A stretch of 64,000 nucleotides of DNA from positions 1,984,001 through 2,048,000 of the forward strand of contig NZ_CP026948.1 of the NCBI RefSeq assembly GCF_003070865.1. Reading direction: 5' to 3'. The stretch's first letter is position 1. Every line of letters starts with the position of its first letter. Under the pieces are notes generated by a model. It ran no database searches. It saw only the letters and a list, made by a program, of their open reading frames with translations, and was not told where the DNA came from. Of the stretch, positions 434 through 47,300 are shown one piece after another. The DNA is from Corynebacterium liangguodongii (lineage in GTDB: Bacteria; Actinomycetota; Actinomycetes; Mycobacteriales; Mycobacteriaceae). Position numbers and translations under genes: made by a program.

Positions 434-471
434 TGTGACATCTCACCCAGGCCAGCTGCCGAGATGTCACA
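434..471. repeat. Solitary A-type intergenic repeat module
   Basis: TGTGACATCTC and GAGATGTCACA form an inverted repeat with a core of exactly 38 bp, the same as the A modules in the large arrays further along. It sits in the convergent gap (205-525) between the first gene and the sortase gene. The usual AGGTGG boundary tag is degenerate or absent here. Apart from this module and the terminator, I see nothing recognisable in 259-525. Confidence 0.75.
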
Positions 472-525: not shown

Positions 526-1404
526 CTATGCGTCCGCGGAGTCTAGCCGCGCCCGCGCCGCCCGACGGCGCTTCACAGCCCGCCACGCAACCAGCAGGGA
601 GACGATGACCACGAGCGCCACCACCGCGATCATCCACCACGACCACGCCCATCCCGACACCTCCGGCTCCGGCACACTGGGGTCAAGCGGCACGCGCTCG
701 GCGTGCACCAACAGCCGGTCGGTATTCAGCCCGTAGGGGGTGCAGGTGATCAGCGTGATCTTGTCCTTGCCCGGCTCGTAGGTCACTCGGTCGTAGGCCT
801 CGGGCTTGACCACCTCGCGCCCCGTCATCTGGTAGCGCAGGCGCTGGCCCATGACGTCGATGTAGATGTCGTCGCCTTCTTTGAGCATGGGAAGCTGGTC
901 GAACATGGCGGCGTTAACCATGCCGGTATGCGCGGAGATCACGGCGTTGGTCCCCTCTCCCCCGACGGGCAGGGTGGAGCCGTACATGTGGCCGGCACCG
1001 TCGTAGAGCACCTTCGGCGCGGTGGTGTGGAAGACGGGGAGGTCGACGTTGATGGCGGGGATGCGGATGCGCGCGATGGTGGAGAAGTTCTCGGGCAGCA
1101 CCAGCTGCGACATGTAGTAGTCAAAGCCGTCGTCGCCCTCGACCGGCGGGCGCGCGTGCGGCCCGGTGGCGAGGAGCCAGTCGTTGTACTCGTGGGCGAG
1201 GCGCAGCTGATCGGCCTTTTCGATGTCGCTGAGTGATTCAACAGCGTCCGAGTAGACCTCGTTCTGCCGGATCAGCGTGTAGTGGTTCGCCAACGTGGAC
1301 ACCACGGGGTAGAGCAGCAGGAGCGCACCCAGCACAAGCACGACGAGGGAGGCTGCGTTGCCGCTTTTCCGCCTCGCGGCCCGCTTATCGACGCCTACGC
1401 TCAC
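526..1404 (-). CDS. Class C sortase (pilus polymerase)
   Basis: A 292-residue membrane transpeptidase that joins pilin monomers through their sorting signals. The N-terminus has a basic stretch and a transmembrane helix (about residues 15-37). The catalytic domain shows the conserved His in SAHTGM, the active Cys in TLITCTP and the Arg in NTDRLLVHAER. A second transmembrane helix and a basic tail at the C-terminus are typical of class C. The GTG start at 1404 overlaps the upstream pilin stop as GTGA; a longer frame reaching upstream only shadows the pilin gene. It is the last gene of the pilus operon and presumably polymerises the pilins encoded before it. Confidence 0.93.
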   Translation of the reverse strand: MSVGVDKRAARRKSGNAASLVVLVLGALLLLYPVVSTLANHYTLIRQNEVYSDAVESLSDIEKADQLRLAHEYNDWLLATGPHARPPVEGDDGFDYYMSQLVLPENFSTIARIRIPAINVDLPVFHTTAPKVLYDGAGHMYGSTLPVGGEGTNAVISAHTGMVNAAMFDQLPMLKEGDDIYIDVMGQRLRYQMTGREVVKPEAYDRVTYEPGKDKITLITCTPYGLNTDRLLVHAERVPLDPSVPEPEVSGWAWSWWMIAVVALVVIVSLLVAWRAVKRRRAARARLDSADA

Positions 1405-2837
1405 GCCCCGGCCCCACCACGCCCGCGCCGGCGCAGGACGAGACCCGCGGCAATGAGCACAAGTGCCAGCATGGTGATGCCGAGCACTCCCGCGCCGGTC
1501 GATGCGAGCCCGGAACGGGAGCCCCCTTGTGTCCCGCCCTGCTCGGAGCCTTGGGCGCCTTCGCCTGGTCCAGCGGCCTGGGGCTGGGCCCCAGGCCCAC
1601 CATCGCCGCCACCGGGCTGCCCGGCGCCGCCGTGGGAGCTGGACCCGCCGGCGCCATTGCTGCCGGGACCGGAGCTGCCCGGGCCGTTGTTTCCTGGCCC
1701 GTCGGTGCCGCCCGAACCGGAATCGTCGGAACCCGGCAGGAAGCAGGCCTTGCGGGTGACCACGTTGACGTGGCTGGTCTTTTCCACGTCGACGGGGGTG
1801 CGCACGGCGTCCATCCCGTCGGTGCGCAGGTGCGCTGTCGTCTCCAGCGTGCCAAGCACCTCGCCGCGGCCCGGGGTGCCCCAGGGGCCGGACGTGTTCG
1901 CCTTGGTGGGGACCCGAATTTCGATGTGTGCGAGGGGGTCGGCCCTGCGGGCGTCGGCAAGCTGCGCTCGCGCCTGCTCCGTTAAGGTAAACGTCGCCGA
2001 CTTGGTGCCGTCGAGCGCGACGGTGTAGCCGGGGCCATCCGCAAGCTCGGTGGTCTTTCCGCCCGCGACGAGCGAAATCGTCGGCTTGGCCAGCTTGACC
2101 ACGGTCTCCTCTCCGCGCGGCTGCAGCCAGGGCAGCCGTAGCAGCATCTTTGCGGCCGCGGCCCGGACGATCACCGGGGAGTCCTCCCACTGGATGGTGT
2201 GCCCAGTGGAGAAATCCAAGGTGATCTCGTAGACCCCCACGCCGCCGTCGACGCTGGGATTGGGGATAGTGAAAGAATAATCGTATTCGACATAGGTGCC
2301 CGGCGCGGCCGCGTTGAGCCAGCGCGGGGTGTTGCATGCAGTGAGCGCCTGGGCACTCACGCCCAGCACCTGCGCCTTGGGAGCGAAGGTGCGGGTCATG
2401 GCCCCCGGGGCGAGCACGACAACCGCGGGCGCGTAAGACACGCGTGCGTCCCGCGTCTGCGGGTTATCGGCCACCTCGAGGAGGTAGACGCCCGGCTCGA
2501 GGCCGGTGAGAGTGGCCACACCGTCTTTGGTTGCCGCGCGGGCAACCTCGTCAAGCGTGGTTCCCGAGCGCAGCAGCGCCGGGACATCGAGCGCGCCAAG
2601 CTGCTCCTGGCCCGCTGCGGTGGAGGGGTCGATCCCATCGATGCGGCTGAGCACGACGTCTCGGTCGCCGATGAGCTCGAACCACTCCTGCCCCACCGAG
2701 TCGACGAGGCTGACATCTACCGTTCCGGCGGCCTGCGCTATTGCGGCAGGCCCGACGGCGGGCAGCGCCACCGGGGTCGCCGCCGCAGTCAGTGCAGCTG
2801 CGACCGCCAGAGGCAGCCACCTTCCTCGTCGACTCAT
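1401..2837 (-). CDS. LPXTG-type minor pilin (LASTG signal)
   Basis: A 478-residue secreted surface protein. A signal peptide occupies about residues 1-37. The C-terminus has a Gly/Ser-rich linker and the sorting signal LASTG (444-448), a hydrophobic helix and an RRRGRGG tail. The body resembles Spa-type pilin folds. A sorting motif departing from LPxTG at the second residue is characteristic of SpaB-like base pilins, so it probably ends the pilus and hands it to the cell-wall anchoring sortase; that role is inference. Start ATG at 2837 has AAGGAAGG upstream. It lies 33 bp after the major pilin gene and overlaps the sortase gene by 4 bp. Confidence 0.85.
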   Translation of the reverse strand: MSRRGRWLPLAVAAALTAAATPVALPAVGPAAIAQAAGTVDVSLVDSVGQEWFELIGDRDVVLSRIDGIDPSTAAGQEQLGALDVPALLRSGTTLDEVARAATKDGVATLTGLEPGVYLLEVADNPQTRDARVSYAPAVVVLAPGAMTRTFAPKAQVLGVSAQALTACNTPRWLNAAAPGTYVEYDYSFTIPNPSVDGGVGVYEITLDFSTGHTIQWEDSPVIVRAAAAKMLLRLPWLQPRGEETVVKLAKPTISLVAGGKTTELADGPGYTVALDGTKSATFTLTEQARAQLADARRADPLAHIEIRVPTKANTSGPWGTPGRGEVLGTLETTAHLRTDGMDAVRTPVDVEKTSHVNVVTRKACFLPGSDDSGSGGTDGPGNNGPGSSGPGSNGAGGSSSHGGAGQPGGGDGGPGAQPQAAGPGEGAQGSEQGGTQGGSRSGLASTGAGVLGITMLALVLIAAGLVLRRRGRGGAGA

Positions 2838-2870
2838 GGGTTCATCCTTCCTTGCAGTAGTGTGCTCGGC

Positions 2871-4367
2871 CTATGCGTTGTTGCGGCGGAGCTGGTAGGC
2901 GGCACCGCCGGCGAAGAGCACGAGGCCGATCGCGAGCATGGCCAGCATCGTGGTGGTACCGGTTGCGGGCAGCTTGCCGAAGATGTTGTCCTTGACGTTG
3001 TTCACCGTGGCGGTGTAGATCGGTCGGCTGTCCGCGTCACCGGGGGTGGTGAGGTTGAGCGGAGTCGGATCCGGTTTGAGCAGGTAGCCGGCCGGGGCCT
3101 GGGTCTCCACGGCGCAGTATTGCTTCTCCGGGTCGAACTGGAGGGCGTAGCCGTTAGCAACGGCAGCGGCATCTGCGGAGCCACCGGCGGTGGTGATCGT
3201 CGTGCCGGCGGTAGCGGTGCCCTCGGCGTTCGCGCCCGTCAGCGGTGCCGCATTCTCGGCGATCTGGTAGCTGGAACCCTGAGCGGTGCACTCGTAGATC
3301 TCAAAGACTGCGCCGGCACCGGTGGTGCCCTCGTCGACGTTGACACCGTTAACCGTCTTGCTCACGGCGACATCGGAGTACTGGGTGGTCACGGCGTCGT
3401 CGGTACCGTCGTTGGGGGTGGACGGGGTGGTGTCCAGCGGTGTGGTCGCGTTCGGGATGAACACCTGGGCGGTGTTGGAGAACTGGCCGTTGGCCGGAAT
3501 CTGGGTGACGGTGGCGTTGAACTTCACCGAGACGGTCAGCCCCGGGTTGGTGGCGCGCCATTCGGCCAGCTTCGCGCGGCCGGCGTCGGTGAAGTCAACG
3601 GTCAGCTTCGGTGCCGTCCAGTCGACGGTGTAGTCGGTGCCGGCCTCCAGGGTCTCACCGCCGGCGCCGCCGGTCACGGTCACCTGGGCACCCTCGGTCT
3701 GGTTGTAGGTCAGGCCCTGCTGCAGCGTGTCCTCGATGCGGAATTGGGTGATGGTGCGGGTGTCGTCCTGCAGCACATCACCGGCGGGAACCGGAGCGTT
3801 GACGGTGTAGACGATGTCCTGGCCAACGGTGACGTTGGTATCCACCGCGGACTTGGTCGGCTCAAGCAGCTGGTTCTTCGGGGAGATAGTCGGGTTGTAG
3901 TTGACCACGCCATCCTCGATCAGCGGCAAAGTGACCAGGAACGGGGCTGCGACGGTGTAGTTGCCGTTTTGGATTTCGGTCACGCGGTAGAGGCCGACGG
4001 TCACGTCGGGGAAGACGGCCTTGCCGTCAGCGCCCGTGGCAACGGTGAATGCCTCACCGGTTACGTTAGCGGCAGCGGCGCCGGCGGCGGTGATGTCGGA
4101 GGCCTCCTGCCAGCCGGCAGCGGTGTTGAGCTGGTTGGTCATCGCAACGCGCTCGACCTTGAACGAGGTGCCCTGGAGCGGCGTAGTGGTGCCGCCAGCC
4201 TCGCCGAGGCGCTTGTCGATGGTCAGGGAGGCATCGGCGTTGATGTCGACACCCTGGGTGTTCTGCGCAACTGCGAACGGGGCGTTGGGGGAAAACGCGA
4301 GCGGGGAGGCCGCCGCGATGGTGGCCGCTGCGGCGATCGCCAGGGCCTTGGAAGAGATTCGGGACAT
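2871..4367 (-). CDS. SpaH/EbpB-type major pilin
   Basis: A 498-residue shaft pilin. It has a signal peptide (about 1-35), a candidate pilin-motif lysine at K164 in the sequence ISPKN just before the KSAVDTNVTVGQDIVYTV strand typical of the family, and an E-box-like YCAVETQAPAGY near the C-terminus. The sorting signal LPATG lies at 466-470 with a membrane helix and an RRNNA tail. The family forms intramolecular isopeptide bonds and is polymerised by the class C sortase. RBS GAAAGGAAAG precedes the ATG. It lies between the tip and minor pilin genes, as in other Spa operons. Confidence 0.92.
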   Translation of the reverse strand: MSRISSKALAIAAAATIAAASPLAFSPNAPFAVAQNTQGVDINADASLTIDKRLGEAGGTTTPLQGTSFKVERVAMTNQLNTAAGWQEASDITAAGAAAANVTGEAFTVATGADGKAVFPDVTVGLYRVTEIQNGNYTVAAPFLVTLPLIEDGVVNYNPTISPKNQLLEPTKSAVDTNVTVGQDIVYTVNAPVPAGDVLQDDTRTITQFRIEDTLQQGLTYNQTEGAQVTVTGGAGGETLEAGTDYTVDWTAPKLTVDFTDAGRAKLAEWRATNPGLTVSVKFNATVTQIPANGQFSNTAQVFIPNATTPLDTTPSTPNDGTDDAVTTQYSDVAVSKTVNGVNVDEGTTGAGAVFEIYECTAQGSSYQIAENAAPLTGANAEGTATAGTTITTAGGSADAAAVANGYALQFDPEKQYCAVETQAPAGYLLKPDPTPLNLTTPGDADSRPIYTATVNNVKDNIFGKLPATGTTTMLAMLAIGLVLFAGGAAYQLRRNNA

Positions 4368-4486
4368 GGTGGGCTTTCCTTTCGAGGAAGATCTGTGAAG
4401 TTAGGACGGGGGAAAGGGTGTGGGCTGGTCGGACTCTTCCGTGGTTTTACGTCATGCCGAACAGCCTCCGCATGAATCGGGCTCGC

Positions 4487-7400
4487 TTACACGGTCGCAT
4501 CAATGGCCTCCGCTTCTTCGCTTGTCGACGCCCCGTCTTCGCGCCGCAGGAATCGCCACGCACCGAAGCCGAAGAGCAACAGGCCTAGCACGAGCATCCA
4601 CGCGAGCGTCTGCATGCCGGTATCCGGCAGAAGTGCGCCGATGATGCCTGTGAGCCGGAGCGCGCCGTAGCCGTCGGTGGCGGTAAGCGTCTGTCCGTTC
4701 GACGTCGCCGTGATGGTGACGTCGCCGAAGTAGCTAAACGTCTTATCCGTAGGCTCGCCGGAGATGTCAACGGTCACCGTGCACGTCAGCGACTGGCCGC
4801 TCGGCACGGTTCCTCCGGCGCACACCGAGGCCGGGATGACCCCGTCTTCGCCAATGTCGGTGCCATTGACGCTGTAGCCGGCCAACGAGGGGTCTTTAAA
4901 CTCCGTGACCTGGGCGTCGAACACGCCGGTGTTCTTCACCGTGTAGGTGATCTCCATCGTCGTGGCGTCATCGGCAAGGATCGCGCGATCGGCCACCGCG
5001 CCGGTCACCGCGCTCACCGGGGTGCCCGGGATGCGCTTGGTCACCTCGATGCCGGGGAAGCTGTTGAGCACCGTAAGTGCCCAGCGATCACCCGCGGTCG
5101 AGGTGTCCTCCCCGCTGGTCGCCAGCGCGACGAAGGACACGGTGCCCGAGCTTGAGGAGGCCGCGGCGTCGCCGATGAGGTCCCCGCTGGTCTGAACGGT
5201 GAGCGCGGGGTTGGCCTGGGGGTTTGCGTCGTCGACCTCGGTGACCACGCAGGTCGAATCCACGGGGACGTCTTTGATAATGTGCGTACCGCCGTCCTTG
5301 AGCTCGAAGGACTGGTCCGCGGCGCTGCACGCCTGGGTGAAGGCGAACGTGTTGCCGCTGCCTGGCTCGCCTTCGGCTTCCTTGGTAAATCGGACGTCGT
5401 ATAGCGCGCGCGGGTGGTAGAACTCCGCGCCGAGCACGAAGGTTACCGAGTCGCTCGGGGCACTACCGGGCACTGTGAACGTCGTGTTGTAGACCTTCGA
5501 ACCCACGTCCCCGAAAGGAACCTGCGTGAGGTTTTTCGAGGTCCCGTTGTACGCCTCGCCGGCCCATTCCGCGTAGCGCATGTAGGGACGCCGGTCCCCG
5601 CCGACGACCTCGACCTGGCCCCGGGCGGCGAGAGCGGGGCTGCTTTCTGCGTTGATTGCGCACTCTAGGCCGACGGGGAGGAGGACGGTATCATCCGACA
5701 CGACGCTGCCGTTGGTTGTCGGCAGCGTGCCTTCAACGACGCTGGTGAGCGGGTACGTCTTGGTCACTTCCCCCGCACCGCAGGTGATCACCAGCGTGTA
5801 GCCCGCCTCGGCGGCCCCGCCGAGGTAGCCGGCCTGGCGCAGCTTGAGGCCGACGGGTGCTGTGCGTCGCTCGATGGTGTCGGTGAAGGTGAACTTCGTC
5901 GGCTCGGTCGCTCCAGGTACCGGGGCGCGGCCCGTCGCGGTAGCTGGGTCTTTAGGATCGGGGTCCTCGTTCGACGCCGATGCCACGCTCATGGTGAGCT
6001 CCTGCGGCAGGCCCGCCGGGGCGACCTCCCGGAAGGTACAGAGCGAACCAGCGGGAACGAGTGCGCCCGGGCTGGTGTAGGTCCACGGGGTGCTCGACGT
6101 GGTGAAATCACCAGTACCGAGGGAGTTCGGGATGGTGTTGTCGTCCGTGCCGATGACGTTGGTCTGGAAGCCGATCGCCTTGCACTGCATGGCGAATTGG
6201 AACCGCGTCTCGGTCAACAGGGAGAGGTCCTCCTGCGTGCCTTCCACGCGCTTTTCCAGCTGCACAGGGGAGTACTGGTAGTTGTAGTGGTTCGTCAGCG
6301 TGACGTGGTTGGCCGCCGCGTCATCGACGGTGAGCACGGCCGGCGAGCTCGTCACACCATCGTCGAGGGCAGTGTCTGCCACCGCGTTGCCGCCGGCTCG
6401 GTCGATGACCCAGTCCACTTCCTCGGGCTTGAGGTAGGCCTCGAGCTTCTGGCCACCATCGCGCATCTCTAGACGCAACGATCCGAAGTTATCGCCGTCG
6501 ATCTTGCAGTCAGCGCCGACTGGCACCCCGGTATAGGTCGTGGTGCCCTCTCCCGTAATCGACTGGGTCTGCTCGAAGAGCATGGCAGTATCCCCCGTCT
6601 CCGGGTCGAAGCACTGCAAGTGGAATTGGTGAGTGTAGAGCTGTTTTTGCAGGTCCTGGCCAGAAGCGGCGTACTGCTCCCGCACGTTGGCGGGCAGGAT
6701 CGCGACCTTGTCTAGCTTGATGTCCGTCAGGCGGCGGGAGTAGACGTTTTGAATCGTGATTAAGTCATCGCCCTCCCGGGCGGTGAACTCGATCGAGTTG
6801 CCGTCGACGCTGGTGTTCCCCTCGCCGGTATTGAGACCGATCTTGGTGGTCAAGGTCACGCCACTGGCTGTCGTCGTCGCCCCTTCGGACCCAGCGCACT
6901 CCGCACCCTCGGGAATGCCCCCCTGGGAAAGGGTTTGCTCATCCTTGATGGTCGTCGAGATGTTCACCAGCGGCGAGCCATCGGGGCTGGTGCACACGAG
7001 AGTGATGGGGAACTGCCGATCCCGCTTGATTTGCTTGCGCGGGTCGGAGATGTATTGCTCCGTGGCGGTATCGAAGATCACCTGCTTGGTGCTTGTGACT
7101 GTCGACGGCTTGTAGCTATAGTCAGCCGAGACGCCGAACACCGTGGACTGGCCGATGGTAAAAGGCGTGCCAAGAGCAATGGTTGAGGGGTCCGAGGACT
7201 GGGTATCCAGCTCACGGTTGATCTTGTACTCAGTGCCCTTGTAGTTCGTGCGCGTGAGGCTATCCGGGTTAGCCTCGCTGATCACGCATTCGCTGCCGAG
7301 GGGAAGCTCTTCCGCAGTGACGCGTCCTTCCTGGCCGTCTGTGAGGTTGAACGTGAAGGTCTTCTCCACTGCCGTCGTCTCCGCGGGTGGCTCTGCGGGA

Positions 7401-10366
7401 TTGACCACAACCGCCTCGTTGACGGTGCAGACGAGAGTGTAGGACATACCCCCGGCGGGAATGAGCTCCTCTTCTCCGCCGAGGGCCTGGTAGATGGTGA
7501 AACCATCGCCGGCTGCGGTAAACGTGTTCGTCGCCGTCACGGAGTTCGTCGGAGCACTCACAGTAATTCCGGGAACGTTCGTGTCCATGATGACAGCGGC
7601 GCTGAGGGTGGGCAGGTCCTCCGTGAACGTGCAGGTGTTGCCGTAGGGAACGCCCATTGCGCCTTCCTGGTCGTTCGCCGCCGGGTCAGTTGCCTGGAGC
7701 ACCGTCGACCCATCGGCCGCGACCTGCGCAGTACCCGTGAGGAAGACGGCACTTTGCCCTATGTTCCTCGTGCCGCAATTAAAGCGGAAGGTATACGAGC
7801 TGGGCACATTGAGGCCAGAGGTGTTGACTACGTCCTTGTTCAGCGTGACGGTGCCAAGCTTGTAGTCGTAGGAGTTCTCCACCGTCACGAGGTTGCGTTC
7901 ACCGGTTTGCGTGAGCCAGACCTTGAGCACGGACGCGTTGTGCGCCTGGCTGTTATCCACCTCGGTGGGGATATCGCTCGCGTCAAAGGAGCGCACGCGT
8001 GCACCCGTAAAGACAGTATTGGCGGTATCCCCCGGCGCGTTTTCCCACACGTTGCAGCTCGATCCCACGGGCACGTTGCCTATCGACGCCTCACTGCCGT
8101 GCCCCCCGAGCTGCGCGGTGCCCTCGGTGACCTTGCCCGTGGGTGCAGTGCAACGGTAGTTCGCCGTGTAGGTGGGGCTCACTAGATCGGGGCTACCTGA
8201 AGCCGGCCCGACGATGAGCTTGTTCACAAACACCTCGCGGACGATGTATTCGTATCCTGTGTGGAAGTGAATCTCGCTGCGCGCGCCGTCGGTTTCCGGA
8301 AGCGTGAAGTGGTAGGAGTAGTTTGCCGCGGGATCAACCTCCACCGTCGCACCGTCGACGGTGACTGTGCGACCAGTAAACCGGATCTGATTTCGCTGCT
8401 CCCCCGCCAGGTCCGTTAAGGGGCGCACGGTGCAATCCTGCCCCACCGGGATGCCGGAGAGCTCTGTGCTGCCCGAGACCGCGGTGCCCGAACGGGACAT
8501 CGTGATCGTCGCGGTCCACTTCGGCAGGTTTGTCGCGGCGCAGGTGACCTCAAAGGAGTAGTTATCAAGCTGGAATCCGTCGATGACCGGGTCGCCGAAG
8601 ATCTCCTTGCTTAAGACCAAGGTGCCCGTGCCGTAGTTGTAGTTGTCGTAGGCGTGGGCGGTGTTAGAGTCCTGCAGCTGCACGGAATACGAGTTGGTTC
8701 CCCCGTTCGGGTTCGCCACCGGCCCGGTAGGCGCCGTGTTCCATTGCAGGTCGAGCTTCGTGCCTGACGGCGGCGCGGCAGAGGCGGGATCCTCTGTCAC
8801 CGTGCAGGATGATCCCTTCGGCAGCACGCCGGTGGTCTGCGAGGTACCGCGCTCGAGGGAGGCGAATCCCGTCAGCTCGAGTCCGGGGTAGGCCTCGCTT
8901 GCGCGCACGTTGGAGACCGTAAGGTCCGTACACGTGTAGTTCAACGTGAACTGGCGCAGCTGGATGTCTTTGTAGCCGGCGGCGTTTCCGGTGACCGACT
9001 TCTGCAGATTCAGCGTCGTGGGCAAGAATCGTGTCTTCCACTGCACTGAGCAGGACGGGACGCGACCGGTCGGGTCAGTCACCACAACCTCGCTCCAATT
9101 TCCCCCTGGCGCGTTGTTGACCCTTACCGGCATATCTTCCGGTTCGCTCCCCGCCTTAAACGTACGGGTGATCGCCGTGGAGTTCGAGTCCGTGAGCGTG
9201 CAGGTCCACGTCGGCTCGTAGCGCTTCGTCGCCATGTTCGCCTGCGCGCCGGTGGCGGTGGAGCGGTAGACCACCGAGCCGGCGTAGGAGTTATCTGCAT
9301 TGCGCGCGCGGATGTAAGCCCCCGTCGTCCCCGGCGTGACATCGATAGGGGTATCGGTGGTGCCCTGCCTGTCGTAGACCTTCAAATCGTTGGGGCTAAA
9401 CGTGGTGACCTGGCCGGTCTGTTGCTGCTCAAAGGCGGTGGAATCGACGCTCACGGCGGTTGCGGGCACGGAGGCGCGGGAGAGGTTGATGCCCATGGCA
9501 AAGGCCTGAACAGTATTGGTGTAGGCACCCATACCAATTCGCAGTGCGGACGGGTTTTTCGTCTCAAAGGTCCAGGTTCCGGGTCTCTCCGGCGGGTTGA
9601 GTGTGAAACCAGGAACGCGGCAAACAAAGTCTTTGAATCCTGCCACCGCGGCAGGCCATTCAATAGGCTTAATAACAGTGCCCGGACCGAACATTGTGTC
9701 TTGATGATTCGCGCCCGTACAGGCCTGATCATAGCCCTGAGGAGTGACGCGGCCGTAGCCCATTGTGGTTCCCCCAGTAGAGACCACGGAGATGATTTCG
9801 CCGACGGAGCCGTTTTTCTTCGTACCTTCCGCGTCGGCGAAGACCACACTAAAGTCCTGGCGCACCCCGCCCTTTGTCACAGCGATCTGGTCTGCGTAAA
9901 GCTCAATGTATTGGGTGGACACCTTGCGAATAATCGGTGTACCTCCATCCCCGGCATAGGGATGAAACACACCTTGACCGCTCGTAGAGTCGCCGAATGC
10001 GCTACCGGTGCCGAGCCTCCCGTTCTGTGTCTCCAGGTAACCGTCTCGAGCATCCGAGTTCTGGATGCTCAGCCGCATCGTGAGCGTGTATGGCCCGATG
10101 GTTTTGGTCACGACATTGCCGTTGAACTCGCTGCGGTTGAAACTAATCCAGCACGTGTTGTTTGCGTAGTCGCGAGCGAGGTCGCCCTGCCGGAAAGAGC
10201 AATCTTTGAAGCTCCAGTTCGTTGCGTTGGGCACGGTCGCCTGCGCCTGCGCCTGCGGGACGCCTACGGGCGCCGCGACGATCGCGAGCGCAACGAGGAG
10301 CGTTGCCACGATCGACAGTGTGCGCCGCGCGCACTCGCTCATCGAGGGGGATGCAGCCGAAAACAT
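4487..10366 (-). CDS. Giant pilus tip adhesin with DUF5979-type repeats
   Basis: A surface protein of about 1959 residues. It has a signal peptide ending near AQAQA, an N-terminal region resembling SpaC-type tip adhesins, then many immunoglobulin-like repeats of about 100-130 residues (each carrying patterns such as C-T-F-T-E-D or VPVG-S-C, DUF5979-like), and the sorting signal LPDTG at about 1913-1917 with a helix and RR tail. I chose the ATG at 10366 because GGAAAGG lies upstream and it leads directly into a signal peptide; an in-frame ATG at 10438 would add 24 residues. It is the first gene of the operon. By analogy with SpaC/SpaF it should sit at the pilus tip and bind host cells (inference). 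Confidence 0.88.
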   Translation of the reverse strand: MFSAASPSMSECARRTLSIVATLLVALAIVAAPVGVPQAQAQATVPNATNWSFKDCSFRQGDLARDYANNTCWISFNRSEFNGNVVTKTIGPYTLTMRLSIQNSDARDGYLETQNGRLGTGSAFGDSTSGQGVFHPYAGDGGTPIIRKVSTQYIELYADQIAVTKGGVRQDFSVVFADAEGTKKNGSVGEIISVVSTGGTTMGYGRVTPQGYDQACTGANHQDTMFGPGTVIKPIEWPAAVAGFKDFVCRVPGFTLNPPERPGTWTFETKNPSALRIGMGAYTNTVQAFAMGINLSRASVPATAVSVDSTAFEQQQTGQVTTFSPNDLKVYDRQGTTDTPIDVTPGTTGAYIRARNADNSYAGSVVYRSTATGAQANMATKRYEPTWTCTLTDSNSTAITRTFKAGSEPEDMPVRVNNAPGGNWSEVVVTDPTGRVPSCSVQWKTRFLPTTLNLQKSVTGNAAGYKDIQLRQFTLNYTCTDLTVSNVRASEAYPGLELTGFASLERGTSQTTGVLPKGSSCTVTEDPASAAPPSGTKLDLQWNTAPTGPVANPNGGTNSYSVQLQDSNTAHAYDNYNYGTGTLVLSKEIFGDPVIDGFQLDNYSFEVTCAATNLPKWTATITMSRSGTAVSGSTELSGIPVGQDCTVRPLTDLAGEQRNQIRFTGRTVTVDGATVEVDPAANYSYHFTLPETDGARSEIHFHTGYEYIVREVFVNKLIVGPASGSPDLVSPTYTANYRCTAPTGKVTEGTAQLGGHGSEASIGNVPVGSSCNVWENAPGDTANTVFTGARVRSFDASDIPTEVDNSQAHNASVLKVWLTQTGERNLVTVENSYDYKLGTVTLNKDVVNTSGLNVPSSYTFRFNCGTRNIGQSAVFLTGTAQVAADGSTVLQATDPAANDQEGAMGVPYGNTCTFTEDLPTLSAAVIMDTNVPGITVSAPTNSVTATNTFTAAGDGFTIYQALGGEEELIPAGGMSYTLVCTVNEAVVVNPAEPPAETTAVEKTFTFNLTDGQEGRVTAEELPLGSECVISEANPDSLTRTNYKGTEYKINRELDTQSSDPSTIALGTPFTIGQSTVFGVSADYSYKPSTVTSTKQVIFDTATEQYISDPRKQIKRDRQFPITLVCTSPDGSPLVNISTTIKDEQTLSQGGIPEGAECAGSEGATTTASGVTLTTKIGLNTGEGNTSVDGNSIEFTAREGDDLITIQNVYSRRLTDIKLDKVAILPANVREQYAASGQDLQKQLYTHQFHLQCFDPETGDTAMLFEQTQSITGEGTTTYTGVPVGADCKIDGDNFGSLRLEMRDGGQKLEAYLKPEEVDWVIDRAGGNAVADTALDDGVTSSPAVLTVDDAAANHVTLTNHYNYQYSPVQLEKRVEGTQEDLSLLTETRFQFAMQCKAIGFQTNVIGTDDNTIPNSLGTGDFTTSSTPWTYTSPGALVPAGSLCTFREVAPAGLPQELTMSVASASNEDPDPKDPATATGRAPVPGATEPTKFTFTDTIERRTAPVGLKLRQAGYLGGAAEAGYTLVITCGAGEVTKTYPLTSVVEGTLPTTNGSVVSDDTVLLPVGLECAINAESSPALAARGQVEVVGGDRRPYMRYAEWAGEAYNGTSKNLTQVPFGDVGSKVYNTTFTVPGSAPSDSVTFVLGAEFYHPRALYDVRFTKEAEGEPGSGNTFAFTQACSAADQSFELKDGGTHIIKDVPVDSTCVVTEVDDANPQANPALTVQTSGDLIGDAAASSSSGTVSFVALATSGEDTSTAGDRWALTVLNSFPGIEVTKRIPGTPVSAVTGAVADRAILADDATTMEITYTVKNTGVFDAQVTEFKDPSLAGYSVNGTDIGEDGVIPASVCAGGTVPSGQSLTCTVTVDISGEPTDKTFSYFGDVTITATSNGQTLTATDGYGALRLTGIIGALLPDTGMQTLAWMLVLGLLLFGFGAWRFLRREDGASTSEEAEAIDATV

Positions 10367-10474
10367 AGGTGAGATGGCCTTTCCGAAAAGTGGGTGCTCG
10401 ACCGTGCAGCGCCCAGCGAGCCTTCTACGAGGCAGCATCCAGCTGAACGCAACTAAACGACTAATACCTCCAGG

Positions 10475-14842: not shown

Positions 14843-16501
<1,659 letters not shown>

Positions 16502-16782: not shown

Positions 16783-17280
16783 GGGTGGCCGAATCTTGGC
16801 CGGGCTTCGATGTGACATCCCGGCAGGTGGGCGGGGTGGGATGTCACATCGGAGGGTTTTCGGGGTGCGTTTGCCCAGGTGATCCGCTCTCGGCGGGGCT
16901 TCGATGTGACCCTACGGCTCCGAAACGTCACATCCAACGATTTTCCGGCTGCGTTTTCCCAGGTGGTCACAGTCACGCAGGGCTTGAATGTGACATCTCG
17001 ACAGGCTAGGCGGGTGAGATGTCACATTGAACGAAAACCCGGGCACAAAACCCCAGGTGGTCACAGTCACGCAGGGCTTGAATGTGACATCTCGACAGGC
17101 TAGGCGGGTGAGATGTCATATTGAACGAAAACCCGGGCACAAAACCCCAGGTGGTCACAGTCTCACACCGCTTGAATGTGACCCTACGGTCCCGAAACGT
17201 CACATCCATCCCAAACCGCCCCCCAAAAAACCAGGCGGCCACACCGAACACCCCCGGAAACGTGACATCCCACCGCCCGC
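16783..17280. repeat. Modular intergenic repeat array 1 (A-B-A-A-B-half)
   Basis: Boundary tags (consensus AGGTGG(T/C)CACA, degenerate at the first two) start at 16783, 16877, 16961, 17055, 17149 and 17233, giving module lengths of 94, 84, 94, 94 and 84 bp. A modules contain TGTGACATCTC...GAGATGTCACA (38-bp core); B modules contain TGTGACCCTACGG...CGTCACA (28-bp core). In every module TGTGAC begins 28 bp after the tag. The modules at 16961 and 17055 are near-identical tandem copies. The array ends in a half module (GTGACATCC). It fills the gap between divergent groEL2 and the M20 peptidase gene. Short ORFs inside it are artefacts. Confidence 0.9.
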
Positions 17281-27853: not shown

Positions 27854-28771
27854 TTATTGCGTACTCCCCACGCGCACGCGTTGCGACGCGCCACGGACCT
27901 GCCGCACCACCCGACCAGGCTCCTCCCTCAACTCCTGCGGCCGATAACGCAGAAACACAAACCCCTCGTTCATCAGCGCCTTCTGCCGATTGTTCTCCTC
28001 GAGGATTGTAAGCTCCGCACCCTCGGAGTACTTCACGTCGCCGTCGACCTCGAGGGCGACGAGGTCGTCGATAAGCAGATCCAGCCGATACCCGCCGACG
28101 GGCACCTGAACCCTGATGTTGACAAAACCAGCCTCGATGAGAATTGCCCGCGCGAGGGACTCGTAGGGAGATTCCGATTTCCCCTTCGCATGCTCGATGC
28201 AGCGCCGCACCACCGCACCATTGGGCATCTTTCCCATCCGCCGCAGCCCTTCGAGGAGGTCCTCGCGGGTGTAGCCGCGCGCGAGCAACCAATCCGCCGC
28301 GATGAGGCCTTCACAAAACCCATGGTCACGCGCGATATCAATGAACGTCCGCACCGGCAACGTCACACGCACCCCATGCACCTCATCAAGGTAGGGCACT
28401 TTGCGACGCCTACACACCACCTTTTTGTTCCTCCGATACGTCGGCGGCACCTGCGTCGACGGAAGGCAGACCTCGACCCGCTCCTCACCCAACGACACCA
28501 CCCACATTCCCAACACCCGCGCCGCCGACCTCCCCAGCAGCACCGCCGCGTACGCATTCTTGCCGACGGCCACCGCCCTCACGAACCGGTCCTCATGAAA
28601 CCGCAGCCGCTTGAGCACCTCCGTCGGTATCGCAATCTGCTTCGTCAGCAGCGTCAACCCATGCCCCGCAGGATCCCTCCTGCGTGGATCATCGCTCCGC
28701 AGCCTCCGCAAATCCACCAGCTCGTCCACCAACGGCTCCCGCCACTTTTGTTCTCCCCGAGTATTCTGCAT
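27854..28771 (-). CDS. DUF559-type nuclease-fold protein (hypothetical)
   Basis: A 305-residue protein. The N-terminal half resembles transcriptional antitoxin (AbiEi-like) architecture but is not recognised with certainty. The C-terminal part (from about 185: SPYESLARAILIEAGF ... GYRLDLLIDDLVALEVDGDVKY ... RQKALMNEGFVFLRYRPQEL) matches the very-short-patch-repair-like DUF559 fold, with the Asp and Glu/Asp cluster of PD-(D/E)xK nucleases. Actinobacteria carry many such genes of unknown role. RBS AAAAGGG is 2-3 nt before the ATG, and an RNA stem CCGGAG/CTCCGG lies in the leader. DNA repair or defence roles are speculative. Confidence 0.65.
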   Translation of the reverse strand: MQNTRGEQKWREPLVDELVDLRRLRSDDPRRRDPAGHGLTLLTKQIAIPTEVLKRLRFHEDRFVRAVAVGKNAYAAVLLGRSAARVLGMWVVSLGEERVEVCLPSTQVPPTYRRNKKVVCRRRKVPYLDEVHGVRVTLPVRTFIDIARDHGFCEGLIAADWLLARGYTREDLLEGLRRMGKMPNGAVVRRCIEHAKGKSESPYESLARAILIEAGFVNIRVQVPVGGYRLDLLIDDLVALEVDGDVKYSEGAELTILEENNRQKALMNEGFVFLRYRPQELREEPGRVVRQVRGASQRVRVGSTQ

Positions 28772-28926: not shown

Positions 28927-29640
28927 GGGCGGTCACCTGTTGGCGGGGCTCCGGTGTGACCCTACGGTTGCGGAATGTCACATACAACACATTTCCAGCG
29001 GCGTTTCCCCAGGTGGTCACAGTCACGCAGGGCTTGAATGTGACATCTCGGCTAGTCATTCCGGGTGAGATGTCACACTGAACGGTTTTCGGCCTGCAAA
29101 ACCCCAGGTGGTCACACCGAAAAAACCCGTCAATGTGACCCTACGGTTCCGAAACGTCACATACAACGAATTTCCAGCAGCGTTTCCCCAGGTGGCCACA
29201 GTCACGCAGAGCTTGAATGTGACATCTCGGCCAGTCATTCCGGGTGAGATGTCACACTGAACGGTTTTCGGCACTCAAAACACCAGGTGGCCACACCGCG
29301 GTGGGGCTTCGATGTGACATCTCGGTAGGTGCGCAGGGTGAGATGTCACAGTGAACGATTTTCGGGGCACAAACCCCAGGTGCTCACAGTCACGCAGGGC
29401 TTCGATGTGACATCTCGACAGGCCAGCCCGGTGAGATGTCACATCGGACCCAAACCAGCCCACAAAACCCCAGGTGGTCACACCGAAAAAACCCGTCAAT
29501 GTGACCCTACGGTTCCGAAACGTCACATACAACGAATTTCCGGCCGTGTTTCCCCAGGTGGTCACGCCGAACAACCCCGAAACTGTGACATCCCACCAAC
29601 CGCCCCAGGTGGCGACACAGAAAACCCAACCCCGAAAACC
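28927..29640. repeat. Modular intergenic repeat array 2 (B-A-B-A-A-A-B-half)
   Basis: Boundary tags start at 28927 (degenerate), 29011, 29106, 29190, 29285, 29378, 29472 and 29556; module lengths are 84, 95, 84, 95, 93, 94 and 84 bp. In each checked module TGTGAC starts 28 bp after the tag. The array ends with a half module (TGTGACATCCCACC from 29584) and one more tag at 29607. It lies between the start of the DUF559 gene and the end of the DUF3263 gene. Small ORFs here with recurring peptides such as CDPTVPKRHIQ come from the repeat and are not genes. The stretch 28801-28926 shows nothing recognisable. Confidence 0.9.
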
Positions 29641-33637: not shown

Positions 33638-34390
33638 GGGTCTTCGGGTTTGTGGGTCTTCCGTTTTAGCGTCTTCGGGTTCCGGAACGTCGCATCTGGG
33701 CTTTGCGGGGTGCGTTTGCGTAGGTGGTCGCAGTCTGGTCGGGGTTCGATGTGACCCTACGGTTCCGAAACGTCACATCGAACGAAAACCCGGGCGCAAA
33801 ACCCCAGGTGGCCACAGTCTCACAGGGCTTCAATGTGACATCTCGGAGGGCGGACCGGGTGAGATGTCACACCGAGCGGGTTTTGGGGATGCGTTTTCCC
33901 AGGTGGTCACAGTCTGGTTGGGGTTCGATGTGACCCTACGGTTCCGAAACGTCACATACAACGGTTTTCGGCACGCAAAACCCCAGGTGGCCACAGTCTC
34001 ACAGGGCTTCAATGTGACTTCTCGGAGGGCGGACCGGGTGAGATGTCACATCGAGCGGGTTTTGGGGATGCGTTTTCCCAGGTGGTCACAGTCTCAGATC
34101 GGTTCAATGTGACCCTACGGTTCCGAAACGTCACATACAACCGTTTTCGGCACGCAAAACCCCAGGTGGTCACAGTCTCAGATCGCTTCGATGTGACATC
34201 TCGGAGGGCGAAACTGGTGAGATGTCACATCCAACAAAAACCAGCCCCCCCCAAACCCCAGGTGGTCACATCGAACTAACCCGAAGCTGGGACACTACTG
34301 TTCCGAAACGTCACATCGAACGATTGCCCGGCCGCAAAACCGACAGAAACGCATCGAACTAACCCGAAAGCGTGACATCTCGGCAACCGA
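33638..34390. repeat. Modular intergenic repeat array 3 (alternating B and A)
   Basis: After a degenerate B module (from about 33638), tags start at 33722, 33806, 33901, 33985, 34080, 34164 and 34260, giving 84, 95, 84, 95, 84 and 96 bp: strict B-A-B-A-B-A alternation. A mutated B follows (TGGGAC at 34288, core still 28 bp), then a half module with CGTGACATCTCGG at 34371. It lies in the convergent gap between cls and the ABC permease gene. ORFs reading VTLRFRNVTYN and similar are repeat translations. Confidence 0.9.
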
Positions 34391-41399: not shown

Positions 41400-41610
41400 C
41401 CCGGGGTTACGGTGCGGAGGGTTTCGGTGTGCCTTTGCGGTTGTGGAACGGCGCATCTGAGGTACTCGGAGGTGCGTTTGCCCAGGTGGTGACCTGTTGG
41501 CGGGGCTTGGGTGTGACATCTCGGCGGGCCGGCCAGGTGAGATGTCACACTCAACGAGTTTCGGGGCACAAAACCCCAGGTGGTCACACTGAACAACCCA
41601 AAGGAAACCT
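41400..41610. repeat. Modular intergenic repeat array 4 (B-A)
   Basis: A degenerate B module (41400-41483, 84 bp; core mutated to GTGTGCCTTTGCGG...GGCGCA) is followed by an intact A module (41484-41577, 94 bp; TGTGACATCTCGG...GAGATGTCACA) and a final tag AGGTGGTCACA at 41578. It lies in the convergent gap between pknG and ackA. No conventional terminator is visible there. Confidence 0.85.
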
Positions 41611-41632
41611 CAGCGCACGCCCTGCCCCGGTC

Positions 41633-44385: not shown

Positions 44386-47300
44386 CTAGGCCTGATCGGC
44401 GCTGGAGGAGCCAGCGGCCGGGTCGGTGCCTTCGGCGCTGGAGCCTGCCGAGCTGGAGCCCTCGGCGTCGGTGCCGGTGGAGCTACCGGCGCCTTCCCAG
44501 GCACCCGGGGTGCAGGCAAGGCCGATGGTCGTTGCCGCACCGATACCGGCAGCGATGGCGGCGAGGCCGCCGACAATCGTGCCAAGGTTCAGCCCGTAGA
44601 CGCGCAGCTGAGCGTCAATGTCGTTGACGAACTTGGCGATCTGCGGGTTGAAGATACCGAGCTGCTTCTGCAGAGCAGTGTTTGCTTCGTTCATCTGGAT
44701 GCGAGCCTGCTCCGTCATCGGCGCGAGGCCGGGGATGTTCACCGTGGTGGCCAGGCCGAGCGGGATCAGGGCCAGCAGCGGGATGCCCCAGCCGAGGGCG
44801 GCCGCGGTGCAGCGGTCCTTCTCGGCATCGCTCAGGTCGGAGCTCAGGTCCGGCGACGGGGCAACATCCGGCTTGGCGACGGTGACCACCACGGTGTCGA
44901 TGGTGTTGCCATCCTTGTCAACCACCTTCACCGTGATCTTGTCACCAGGCTTCGCGTCCTGGTTCGGAGTCACCACCAGGTTGCCATCCTTATCGATGAC
45001 CGCCGCACCCGGACCAGCAACCCCCACGCTGACATCAGCCGGAACAGAGCCACCATCATTCGGCAACGTCACAGCCTCACCCGGCTTGACCTCACCATCA
45101 TTCCAATCCGGAGCAGCCGGGGTCTCCGGCTCGGCGACCGTGACCACCACGGTGTCGATGGTGTTGCCATCCTTGTCAACCACCTTCACCGTGATCTTGT
45201 CACCAGGCTTCGCGTCCTGGTTCGGAGTCACCACCAGGTTGCCATCCTTATCGATGACCGCCGCACCCGGACCAGCAACCCCCACGCTGACATCAGCCGG
45301 AACAGAGCCACCAGCATTCGGCAACGTCACAGCCTCACCCGGCTTGACCTCACCATCATTCCAATCCGGAGCAGCCGGGGTCACCGGCTCGGTGACCGTG
45401 ACCACCACGGTGTCGATGGTGTTGCCATCCTTGTCAACCACCTTCACCGTGATCTTGTCACCAGGCTTCGCGTCCTGGTTCGGAGTCACCACCAGGTTGC
45501 CATCCTTATCGATGACCGCCGCACCCGGACCAGCAACCCCCACGCTGACATCAGCCGGAACAGAGCCACCAGCATTCGGCAACGTCACAGCCTCACCCGG
45601 CTTGGCCTCACCATCATTCCAATCCGGAGCAGCCGGGGTCACCGGCTTAGAGTTGCCATCCTTCGGGTTCGAACCAGCCTCGGTCTCGACAACGTCCGAA
45701 ACACCATCGTTGTCATCGTCCTCATCGGTGACATCCGGGATGCCATCGCCATCGGTGTCGAGCTGGAACTTCGCCAGAACATCCTCGTCGATAGTGCCAT
45801 CCGGGTACGCAACATCAACCGGAACCGGGAACTCCTCGGCAGTCTCAGCATTCAACTCAGCCGGAGCGATGACCTTGACAACACCGGTGGCCTCATCCAC
45901 CGAGATGGTGTAGCCCTCCGGGGTGATGAAACGCGAGTCAATCGAGAACTTCGTACCAGCAGGAACACCCTCAATCGGCTGACCAGTCTCAGCATTCTTC
46001 AGCACCGGCGCAGACTCCACGGTCGCACCCGCAGCAACAAGCTTTTCCTCATACGACGGATCAAGCAAAACATCAAGCTTGTTAAACACCGTCACAGTCA
46101 CAGTGTCAAGAACCTCACCAGCAGAGTCCTTCACCGTCACCACAATCTTGTCACCAGGCTTCACGTCCTGGTTCGGGGTCACCGTAATCGAACCGTCCTG
46201 GTTCAGAACTGCGCTGCCCGAGCCAGCAACCTCAACCGTGCTCTTCTCCGGAACCGCACCACCAGCATTCGGAATCGACACCAGGTTACCATCAGAAGCA
46301 GCATCATCCCACTTCGGGTTCTCAGCCGCCGCTCCAACGGTCACCGAAGCGTATGCGGTCTCCTTGGTTCCATCCGCGTAGGTCACTACGACGGGGATGG
46401 AGTACTGACCCTCTGCGACCGTCTGATCGACGGTGATGGAGCCATCTGGGTTGATGGTGAAGCCCTCAGGCGTGTTGGACGCGATCGCGCTCGGCGCGAA
46501 GGTCGTGCCCTCTGGGGTCGGCACTGTCTCATCGGCGGCGTTGGTGAACGTCGGTGCTGCGACGGTGCCTCCCTGCCCCTGGGGCACCGTCAGCGGAGCA
46601 TACGCGGGCTGGTACTCAGCGGCGTCGTTGGTGACATGAACAGCGAAGGAATCAGCTGCCACAGCGTCATCGGCTTCGTAGTAGGTCGCGGTGATGATGT
46701 CGTTGTTCGCCTGATCTTCGGGCACCGTGTAGGTGCAAGCCTCGCCTTCGGTGAGGGAGGTGATGTTGTCACAGGTCTTAAGAACGTCGCCGGCGGAGTT
46801 CGTCCACACAATCTTGTTGACGAACGGCGAAATCTGGCCGTTGAGATCGATCAGCGCCGTATCGCCCGGACCAGCGGGGTTCTCGGCAACATCGAAGTTG
46901 GTGATGTCGAGGCTGATCTCAACCGACGGAACGAGCGCGAAAGAGACATTGTAGAGCTCGTTCGTCAGGCCGACGTTCGGCGTTACCAAGCCGTTGTAGG
47001 AAGGTCGTGTGGCGACATCTCCGTTAAACGCCCCGAAGCTCAGCGACATGAAGTTGTTGTAGCCGGGCACGACGTTGCCGGCGGGGTCTTCCACCCACAT
47101 GATCATGTTCTCGCGGTCGAGGTAGTCCCCGAAGCGCAGGGTGTACATTCCGTTGGTGCCGACGGGACCGTAGACGGTCTTGGCGATGTACTCGGGGTGA
47201 TCGGTCAGCATGGTCTTGGTTGCTGCCGCACGCTGCTCGAAGGGGAGTGCCTTGATCGCCGCGTTGGCAGCTGCGCCCTCAGGCGTCAGCGTTGAAGCCC

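What the first reader, a model, noticed from the sequence alone, without database searches (positions are those of the whole stretch)
28927..29640. Helically phased two-module intergenic repeat arrays
Arrays at 16.8-17.3, 28.9-29.6, 33.6-34.4 and 41.4-41.6 kb are built from two interchangeable modules: B (84 bp in every clear case) and A (93-96 bp, mostly 94-95). Both start with the tag AGGTGG(T/C)CACA; TGTGAC begins 28 bp later and pairs with GTCACA to give a core of 28 bp (B) or 38 bp (A). The modules therefore differ by one helical turn, and 84 and 94.5 bp are 8 and 9 turns of B-DNA, so every tag falls on the same face of the helix. Such length quantisation suggests selection for a phased protein-DNA architecture or paired RNA hairpins, not random MITE decay. 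I know of no named family with this design.
Basis: partly seen in the sequence, partly recalled or inferred. Interest (0 to 1): 0.88.

Follow-up and report, generated by a model that had tools for sequence, protein, structure and literature searches.

The report
Length-locked intergenic repeat arrays
Several spaces between genes in this bacterium are filled with a short repeat whose letters drift while its length and a few tiny motifs stay fixed, most likely because a still unknown protein binds them, which would make it a new lineage-specific chromosomal repeat rather than decaying junk DNA.

Summary
In detail: arrays of 84 bp (B) and 93-96 bp (A) modules, with palindromes far beyond chance. 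Relatives change the anatomy. The unit is GTCAC - 58 bp - GTGAC with a CAGGT box inside; A and B differ mainly in the junction between neighbouring units. A profile of the unit matched 5 of 242 genomes of the genus: this one and its four nearest by groEL score. In sister species G020, 61 of 62 junctions are 27 bp, giving an 85 bp pitch. Some sites are shared by two to four species. Between two close species the GTCAC/GTGAC arms differ at 2% of positions and the remaining interior at 32%; indels per substitution are five times rarer than in other noncoding DNA. Outer arm positions do not covary within G020 and G021, and G-U is no commoner than A-C, so RNA or cruciform hairpins are unlikely. I read the arms as DNA half-sites for an unidentified protein. 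Helical phasing is unproven: implied pitches near 84.5, 94.5, 104.5 and 146.5 bp fit, 77 and 112 bp do not. No RAYT gene, Rfam match, or phage or plasmid copy was found. Binder and function remain unknown.

The parts
28927..29640 (+). main array: B A B A A A B plus a terminal half unit, between a DUF559/MTES_1575-like gene (27854-28771, -) and a DUF3263 gene (- strand, its stop codon begins at 29640)
   Evidence: an array lies at the same gene border in G020
16785..17275 (+). array upstream of groEL (14843-16483, -) and of an M20 peptidase gene (+)
   Evidence: the same site holds arrays in G020, G021 and G059, not in G042
33655..34330 (+). array of alternating B and A modules (179 bp dimers) between a PLD-domain gene (+) and an ABC-2 transporter gene (-)
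41440..41615 (+). short array (one A module and partial units) between a pknG-like gene (+) and ackA (-)
   Evidence: same site in G020 and G021
434..471 (-). solitary 38 bp palindromic core downstream of a sortase gene (526-2337, -)
   Evidence: the same gene region holds units in G059 and G042
29134..29161 (.). example of a B junction: 28 bp core TGTGAC..GTCACA
29039..29077 (.). example of an A junction: 39 bp core with TGTGACATCTC / GAGATGTCACA arms
29104..29116 (+). example of the CCAGGTGGTCACA tag; CAGGT is the part conserved in all five species

Best explanation
A lineage-specific family of intergenic repeats that works at the DNA level. The unit is a roughly 80 bp element: half-site (GAGATGTCAC-RGTSAA), 58 bp interior with an AAAACCCCAGGT box, inverted half-site (TTSAYYGTGACATCTC). 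Units occur singly and as head-to-tail arrays, in which each junction places two half-sites as a palindrome. Arrays are inherited at certain gene borders and change by whole units. The arms, the CAGGT box and the spacing are kept by purifying selection, most simply because an unidentified DNA-binding protein contacts the half-sites and the box and needs fixed distances between them. Shown: anatomy, clade restriction at the search's sensitivity, shared sites, fixed length, slow arms, no covariation of outer arm positions in G020 and G021. Inferred: that a protein is the cause. Open: whether the 8-turn pitch aligns sites on one face of the helix, and what the host gains.
For: Interior 58 bp in 142 of 156 units of five species (which allowed 56-60 and counts some near-palindromic units on both strands) and in 123 of 149 spacings when any length up to 90 was allowed. 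Junction 27 bp in 61 of 62 (G020) and 19 of 20 (G021). Between orthologous G020 and G021 loci: GTCAC/GTGAC mismatched at 10 of 485 positions, CAGGT 16 of 245, bulk of interior 560 of 1757 (arms plus tag against bulk, p 8e-65). Indels/substitutions 26/915 in arrays, 21/145 in other noncoding DNA, p 6e-7. In G020+G021 the base pair next to the core is Watson-Crick in 35 of 80 junctions against 44.8 expected by shuffling, with 18 G.U and 25 A.C. Neighbouring genes occur in every orientation: 23 tandem, 12 convergent, 11 divergent of 46 clusters (composition-based ORFs, no genome baseline). The arm consensus differs between species on both sides.
Against: No binding protein was identified. A transposase that once recognised the ends could also have set the motif, and gene conversion between units could hide indels and substitutions. 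The alignments pair some paralogous units. Units were found by the same arms whose conservation is then measured, although only the G020 copy was so selected and the G021 base was free. The within-genome covariation test covers seven outer positions, not the inner arms. In G000 units at shared sites are no closer to those of G020, G021 or G059 than units at other sites are.
Confidence: 0.5

Rival explanations
1. Relic of a small non-autonomous transposable element (MITE): inverted ends were recognised by a lost transposase, copies spread, arrays grew by unequal recombination, and nothing is now selected.
For: Mostly single dispersed copies with inverted ends in G042; half-site numbers differ widely (G020 152, G059 5); arrays change by whole units; the site of the G020 array at 1409 kb is without an array in G042 and G059.
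Against: Arms about 15 times slower than the bulk of the interior between G020 and G021, which neutral decay does not give; no clear target-site duplication in the one comparison made; no phage or plasmid match for window 28950-29640; of six isolated end-motif places inspected, two were units (one shortened), one an array, two lay in open coding frames and one was not resolved, and none was seen to be the end of an insertion sequence.
Confidence: 0.28
2. Transcribed RNA hairpins (terminators, mRNA stabilisers or a small RNA).
For: Strong palindromes; the pooled alignment of 35 units shows apparent covariation.
Against: Outer-arm covariation is absent within G020 and G021, where A.C mismatches are as frequent as G.U; neighbouring genes occur in every orientation; no Rfam match in the window; the two terminator-like sites found in 28.7-29.8 kb (1.3 in shuffles) lie beyond the repeat units.
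Confidence: 0.06
3. Recombination sites: the 26-27 bp palindromic junction is the core of a site-specific recombinase site, and units are exchanged like cassettes.
For: 10 bp arms around a 6-7 bp centre resemble tyrosine-recombinase core sites (recalled resemblance); arrays change by whole units.
Against: Junctions of 19, 36-37, 46-47, 54 and 88-89 bp also exist; centres vary; no recombinase family among the 20 window proteins scanned; whole-unit change is equally expected from homologous recombination.
Confidence: 0.07
4. Plain tandem repeats (VNTR) produced by slippage and kept similar by gene conversion; the two length classes are founder effects.
For: AB dimers of 179 bp; within-array distance 0.233 against 0.374 between arrays in G020 (in G000 there is no such difference, 0.331 against 0.334).
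Against: Does not explain position-specific conservation of arms and box, nor the 58 bp interior in G042, where most units are single (10 of 10; L118 holds two units and L124 is counted on both strands).
Confidence: 0.09

Closest known systems
REP/BIME elements of enterobacteria and pseudomonads
   Same: short intergenic palindromic units in mosaic arrays with module variants; E. coli BIMEs are reported to interact with gyrase and IHF (passage of PMC2267715 seen)
   Different: the RAYT family Y1_Tnp (PF01797) matched 0 of 9 genomes searched (the five with repeats and four without), while the control rang in 5 of 14 genomes; the unit is a pair of half-sites 58 bp apart; pitch is locked
STAR elements of staphylococci
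   Same: intergenic repeat arrays, locus-specific sequences, expansion and contraction, abundance differing between species (abstract of PMC3532100)
   Different: STAR sites differ between species (abstract), whereas here a number of sites are shared; sequences not compared
MIRU of mycobacteria and other VNTR
   Same: short intergenic tandem units in an actinobacterium (recalled)
   Different: inverted half-sites and fixed 58 bp interior; sequence not compared here
MITEs
   Same: about 80 bp with inverted ends, dispersed single copies
   Different: no parent element or target-site duplication found; position-specific constraint between close species
Cod families of Corynebacterium diphtheriae (PMC2267715)
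   Same: stem-loop repeat families in what is probably the same genus; Cod-5 is listed as 74 bp, 35(29) members, type I (intergenic) (table passage)

Membership tests
REP/BIME with RAYT | RAYT (Y1_Tnp) gene in the genome | tested here: not met
   matches in 0 of 9 genomes; control positive in 5 of 14
REP/BIME with RAYT | individual self-complementary REP with a 5' tetranucleotide (recalled definition) | tested here: inconclusive
   half-sites are not self-complementary and palindromes form at junctions between units (by inspection), but one solitary palindrome exists at 434-471
MITE | terminal inverted repeats | tested here: met
   GATGTCACRGTSAA and its inverse at the two ends; single copies in G042
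MITE | target-site duplication | tested here: inconclusive
   one filled/empty comparison, G020/G021 against G042/G059, shows only a degenerate flank similarity
MITE | related autonomous element | tested here: inconclusive
   none seen among six isolated end-motif places inspected; no insertion-sequence library available
STAR-like intergenic repeats | sites differ between species | tested here: not met
   a number of sites are shared by two to four species; other sites are unshared or unchecked
Structured RNA family | match to an Rfam family | tested here: not met
   no match at gathering score in the window
Structured RNA family | compensatory changes within a genome, G-U tolerated more than A-C | tested here: not met
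   seven outer arm positions
Helically phased protein-DNA array | pitches multiples of about 10.5 bp over independent events | tested here: inconclusive
   4 of 6 implied pitch classes fit
Helically phased protein-DNA array | bound protein | not testable with these tools
   needs pull-down or ChIP

The most novel reading that the evidence does not exclude
The arrays are fixed-pitch nucleoprotein scaffolds. One protein binds half-sites repeated every 8 (or 9, 10, 14) helical turns on one face of the DNA, and the recurring concentration of arrays in a region of some 50-85 kb that includes groEL marks a chromosomal domain that this clade organises in this way, like a small lineage-specific centromere or boundary system.
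Probability: 0.13. Interest if true: 0.82.

Novelty: new variant of a known kind. Interest (0 to 1): 0.56.

Why it matters
Bacterial intergenic repeats are often treated as mobile-element debris or RNA hairpins. Here comparison of close species separates the readings: a few short DNA boxes and the distances between them are kept while the rest changes. That points to a dedicated DNA-binding protein with many co-ordinated sites in a small clade, and one 85 bp unit is a ready probe for finding it. If phasing is real, natural pitches of 84/85, 94/95, 104/105 and 146/147 bp would be a ready-made series for testing how helical register governs a bacterial nucleoprotein array.

Tried and rejected
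RNA hairpin reading: the pooled alignment suggested covariation (42 double-change cells, 0 of 500 shuffles as high; but 6 pairs with a double change against 5.7 in shuffles), and by genome it is absent at the outer arm positions, so it reflects differences between species. Strict two-module quantisation: rejected as a rule for the family, because G020 and G021 have essentially one junction class (27 bp) and 19, 46/47, 54 and 88/89 bp junctions exist. Terminator or promoter role: all gene orientations occur. REP/RAYT: gene not found. Phage or plasmid copies: no match for window 28950-29640. The viral-contig scan gave 6 matches; I judged them chance by eye, since five are alike and read like one coding sequence, the sixth lies in a contig of 47% GC, and no second unit shows in the 40 bases printed on either side; no ORF test was made. 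The single genome-contig scan returned one Selenomonadaceae contig, taken as chance and not followed up; the window's own genome may be left out there, so the species could not be named. An earlier genus search with a tag-containing pattern matched only G000 among 151 genomes, because the tag differs in the relatives.

Literature: eight searches listed nothing that I recognised as this family. I saw search listings only, except passages of PMC2267715 and the abstract and outline of PMC3532100. The library lacks most subscription journals.

Weak points: one search scored only the 18 best candidates per genome, so counts are lower bounds (the G020 groEL array is not in its list and appears). The place list is cut for G020. 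In one search the G000 rows contain 5 bp artefacts of overlapping motifs. In one search some units are counted on both strands; removes these, drops units with interiors other than 58 bp, and leaves 133. The orthology labels were set by hand; the label for L175 was a guess then and was borne out. In one search ORFs were chosen by composition, the small DUF3263 gene was missed (so the main array is called divergent there although that gene makes it tandem), and the 41.4 kb array was not among the clusters. Of seven G020 sites sought in G021, five have an array there, one matched but its array was not resolved (L167/L203) and one gave no G021 match.

Full report
WHAT IS THERE. The window is G000:C1:1984001-2048000 of a single-contig genome of 2,357,924 bp, 64.7% GC in the window. 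The palindrome TGTGAC N10-34 GTCACA occurs 19 times in the window against 0.03 expected and at 26 places in the genome against 1 for the reversed control. B modules are 84 bp in the 7 window cases measured, A modules 93-96 bp in 10. Two arrays are largely built of 179 bp AB dimers.

THE FAMILY. A sequence profile of 35 units from G000 and G020 (A1; R1), searched in 242 genomes of the genus, matched 5: G000, G020, G021, G042 and G059 (only the 18 best candidates were scored per genome, so weaker copies may be missed). By groEL DNA the four others are the nearest to G000 by bit score (1563-1596 bits, 90% identity; the next, G038, 1396 bits, 87%; some others reach 88-89% over shorter stretches). 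The family is thus confined, at this sensitivity, to one small group of relatives. The half-site pattern RATGTCACRSTSRA occurs 11 (G000), 152 (G020), 49 (G021), 14 (G042) and 5 (G059) times on both strands together, with reversed controls of 0, 0, 2, 0 and 0; some of the isolated places are coding sequence. The search for TGTGACATC N10-24 GATGTCACA in 242 genomes matched G000 and G020 only. No phage or plasmid record matched window 28950-29640.

ANATOMY REVISED. In G042 units are mostly single. They show the unit: GTCAC, 58 bp, GTGAC, with AAAACCCCAGGT inside, and inverted ends reaching about 13-16 bp. The interior is 58 bp in 142 of 156 units over five species (allowed range 56-60); with an open range up to 90 bp, 58 is found in 123 of 149 spacings. 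Junction length (GTGAC to GTCAC) is 27 in 61 of 62 (G020) and 19 of 20 (G021); 26 (9), 36 (7) and 37 (2) in G000; 19 and 27 in G059; 54 in G042; 88 and 89 once each in G020 and G021 at the same metE site. Junctions of 46 and 47 were also seen in G020 and one more of 19 in G042. In seven G020 arrays the step between units is 85 bp in 28 of 29 cases and 86 in one. So A and B are the same unit with a junction about 10 bp longer or shorter; B has in addition its own inner sequence. At 1472 kb of G000 A-like arms carry a 28 bp core.

INHERITANCE. Blastn of flanks places arrays or units of different species at the same gene borders: pknG/ackA in G000, G020 and G021; DUF3263 in G000 and G020; upstream of groEL in G000, G020, G021 and G059 but not G042; downstream of metE in G000, G020 and G021; next to the sortase gene in G000 (a solitary palindrome), G042 and G059; and further sites shared by pairs. 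Of seven further G020 sites sought in G021, five carry an array there. One pair (L116/L124) has opposite orientation, as far as a degenerate tag shows. Units at shared sites are closer to each other than to units elsewhere for G020/G021 (0.237 against 0.366), G020/G059 (0.258 against 0.402), G021/G059 (0.173 against 0.400) and G000/G042 (0.314 against 0.402, 5 pairs), but not for G000 against G020, G021 or G059 (0.464-0.481 against 0.446-0.458), nor for G042/G059 (0.496 against 0.412, 3 pairs). Within G000, units of one array are no more alike than units of different arrays (0.331, 0.334), unlike G020 (0.233, 0.374), so G000 has probably re-amplified or mixed its own versions. Copy number changes by whole units: at one site (G020 1409 kb) the alignments left and right of the array are offset by 425 bp, five times 85, between G020 and G021. 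At that site the two flanks lie 41 bp apart in G042 and 67 bp apart in G059, without an array, and no clear target-site duplication is visible.

SELECTION. Across nine G020/G021 locus pairs, array DNA has 26 indels per 915 substitutions, other noncoding DNA 21 per 145 and coding DNA 16 per 1891 (arrays against noncoding p 6e-7). For about 49 G020 units aligned to G021, the GTCAC/GTGAC arms differ at 10 of 485 positions, CAGGT at 16 of 245, the A-rich box before it at 34 of 343, the outer arm at 65 of 483, the three bases inside each arm at 43 of 291, and the bulk of the interior at 560 of 1757. A dead element decaying neutrally would not show a 15-fold difference. Caveats: some aligned units are paralogous, and units were selected by their arms in G020, though not in G021.

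DNA, NOT RNA. If the palindromes acted as RNA or cruciforms, the two arms of one junction should covary, and for RNA G.U should be tolerated more than A.C. In 80 junctions of G020 and G021 the first outer pair is Watson-Crick in 35 (44.8 expected by shuffling), G.U in 18 and A.C in 25; the other six outer pairs are at or below expectation too. In G000 (18 junctions) every position is within about 3 of expectation, the largest excess being 9 against 6.5. The inner arms were not tested in this way. The apparent covariation of the pooled alignment is thus mostly a difference between species. Neighbouring genes occur in every orientation (23 tandem, 12 convergent, 11 divergent of 46; ORFs by a composition rule, no genome baseline). 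This suits half-sites read in duplex DNA by a protein whose preference, or founder copy, differs between species.

PHASING. Implied pitches (junction plus 58 bp) of 84/85, 94/95, 104/105 and 146/147 bp are close to 8, 9, 10 and 14 turns; 77 and 112 bp are not. All classes together: R 0.35-0.48, p 0.26-0.45; the four in-phase classes alone: R 0.97, p 0.004, but that choice was made after seeing the data. The in-phase classes come from the three species with many arrays and the out-of-phase ones from the two sparse species, which is suggestive only. No 36-37 bp junction, hence no A/B alternation, was seen in G020 or G021.

REGIONAL CLUSTERING. Of the R1 matches, 17 of 19 in G000 lie within 1974-2026 kb, 17 of 24 in G020 within 1085-1141 kb, 10 of 20 in G021 within 166-222 kb of contig C75, 5 of 5 in G059 within 1343-1407 kb and 6 of 13 in G042 within 1868-1952 kb (some are one unit matched on both strands, and only 18 candidates per genome were scored). 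Each of these regions contains groEL. The half-site list shows that G020 also has many arrays elsewhere. The cause of the concentration is unknown.

VERDICT. The feature is real, was not found in the searched literature, and shows position-specific and length constraint. It is filed as a new variant of the broad kind 'bacterial intergenic mosaic repeat', not as a member of REP/BIME, STAR or MITE families, for the reasons in the membership table. Protein binding is the best inference (0.5); a transposon relic is the main rival (0.28).

Noticed in passing
window 44868-45647: 258 bp repeat, 3 copies at 98% matches, inside a 1284 aa gene with Long Rib and Ig-like domains.
   Followed up: no
window 526-10438: Possible sortase and pilin cluster: sortase, a Gram-positive pilin D1/Cna-B protein and a 1983 aa protein with nine DUF5979 stretches.
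   Followed up: no
L014 and L018 (G000 about 870.9 and 872.8 kb): Two fragments of the repeat lie near copies of the same other sequence (GTGTCACGTTGTTCGTG...), as if a mobile element had entered an array.
   Followed up: no
window 27854-28771: A gene weakly like MTES_1575/DUF559 endonucleases lies directly beside the main array.
   Followed up: no
L116 and L124: At one shared gene border the unit seems to have opposite orientation in G059 and G042, as if inverted or inserted twice.
   Followed up: partly
L181 (G020, metE site): Junctions of 46 and 47 bp carry an extra inner palindrome (TGCGCAG..CTGCGCA) between the arms.
   Followed up: partly
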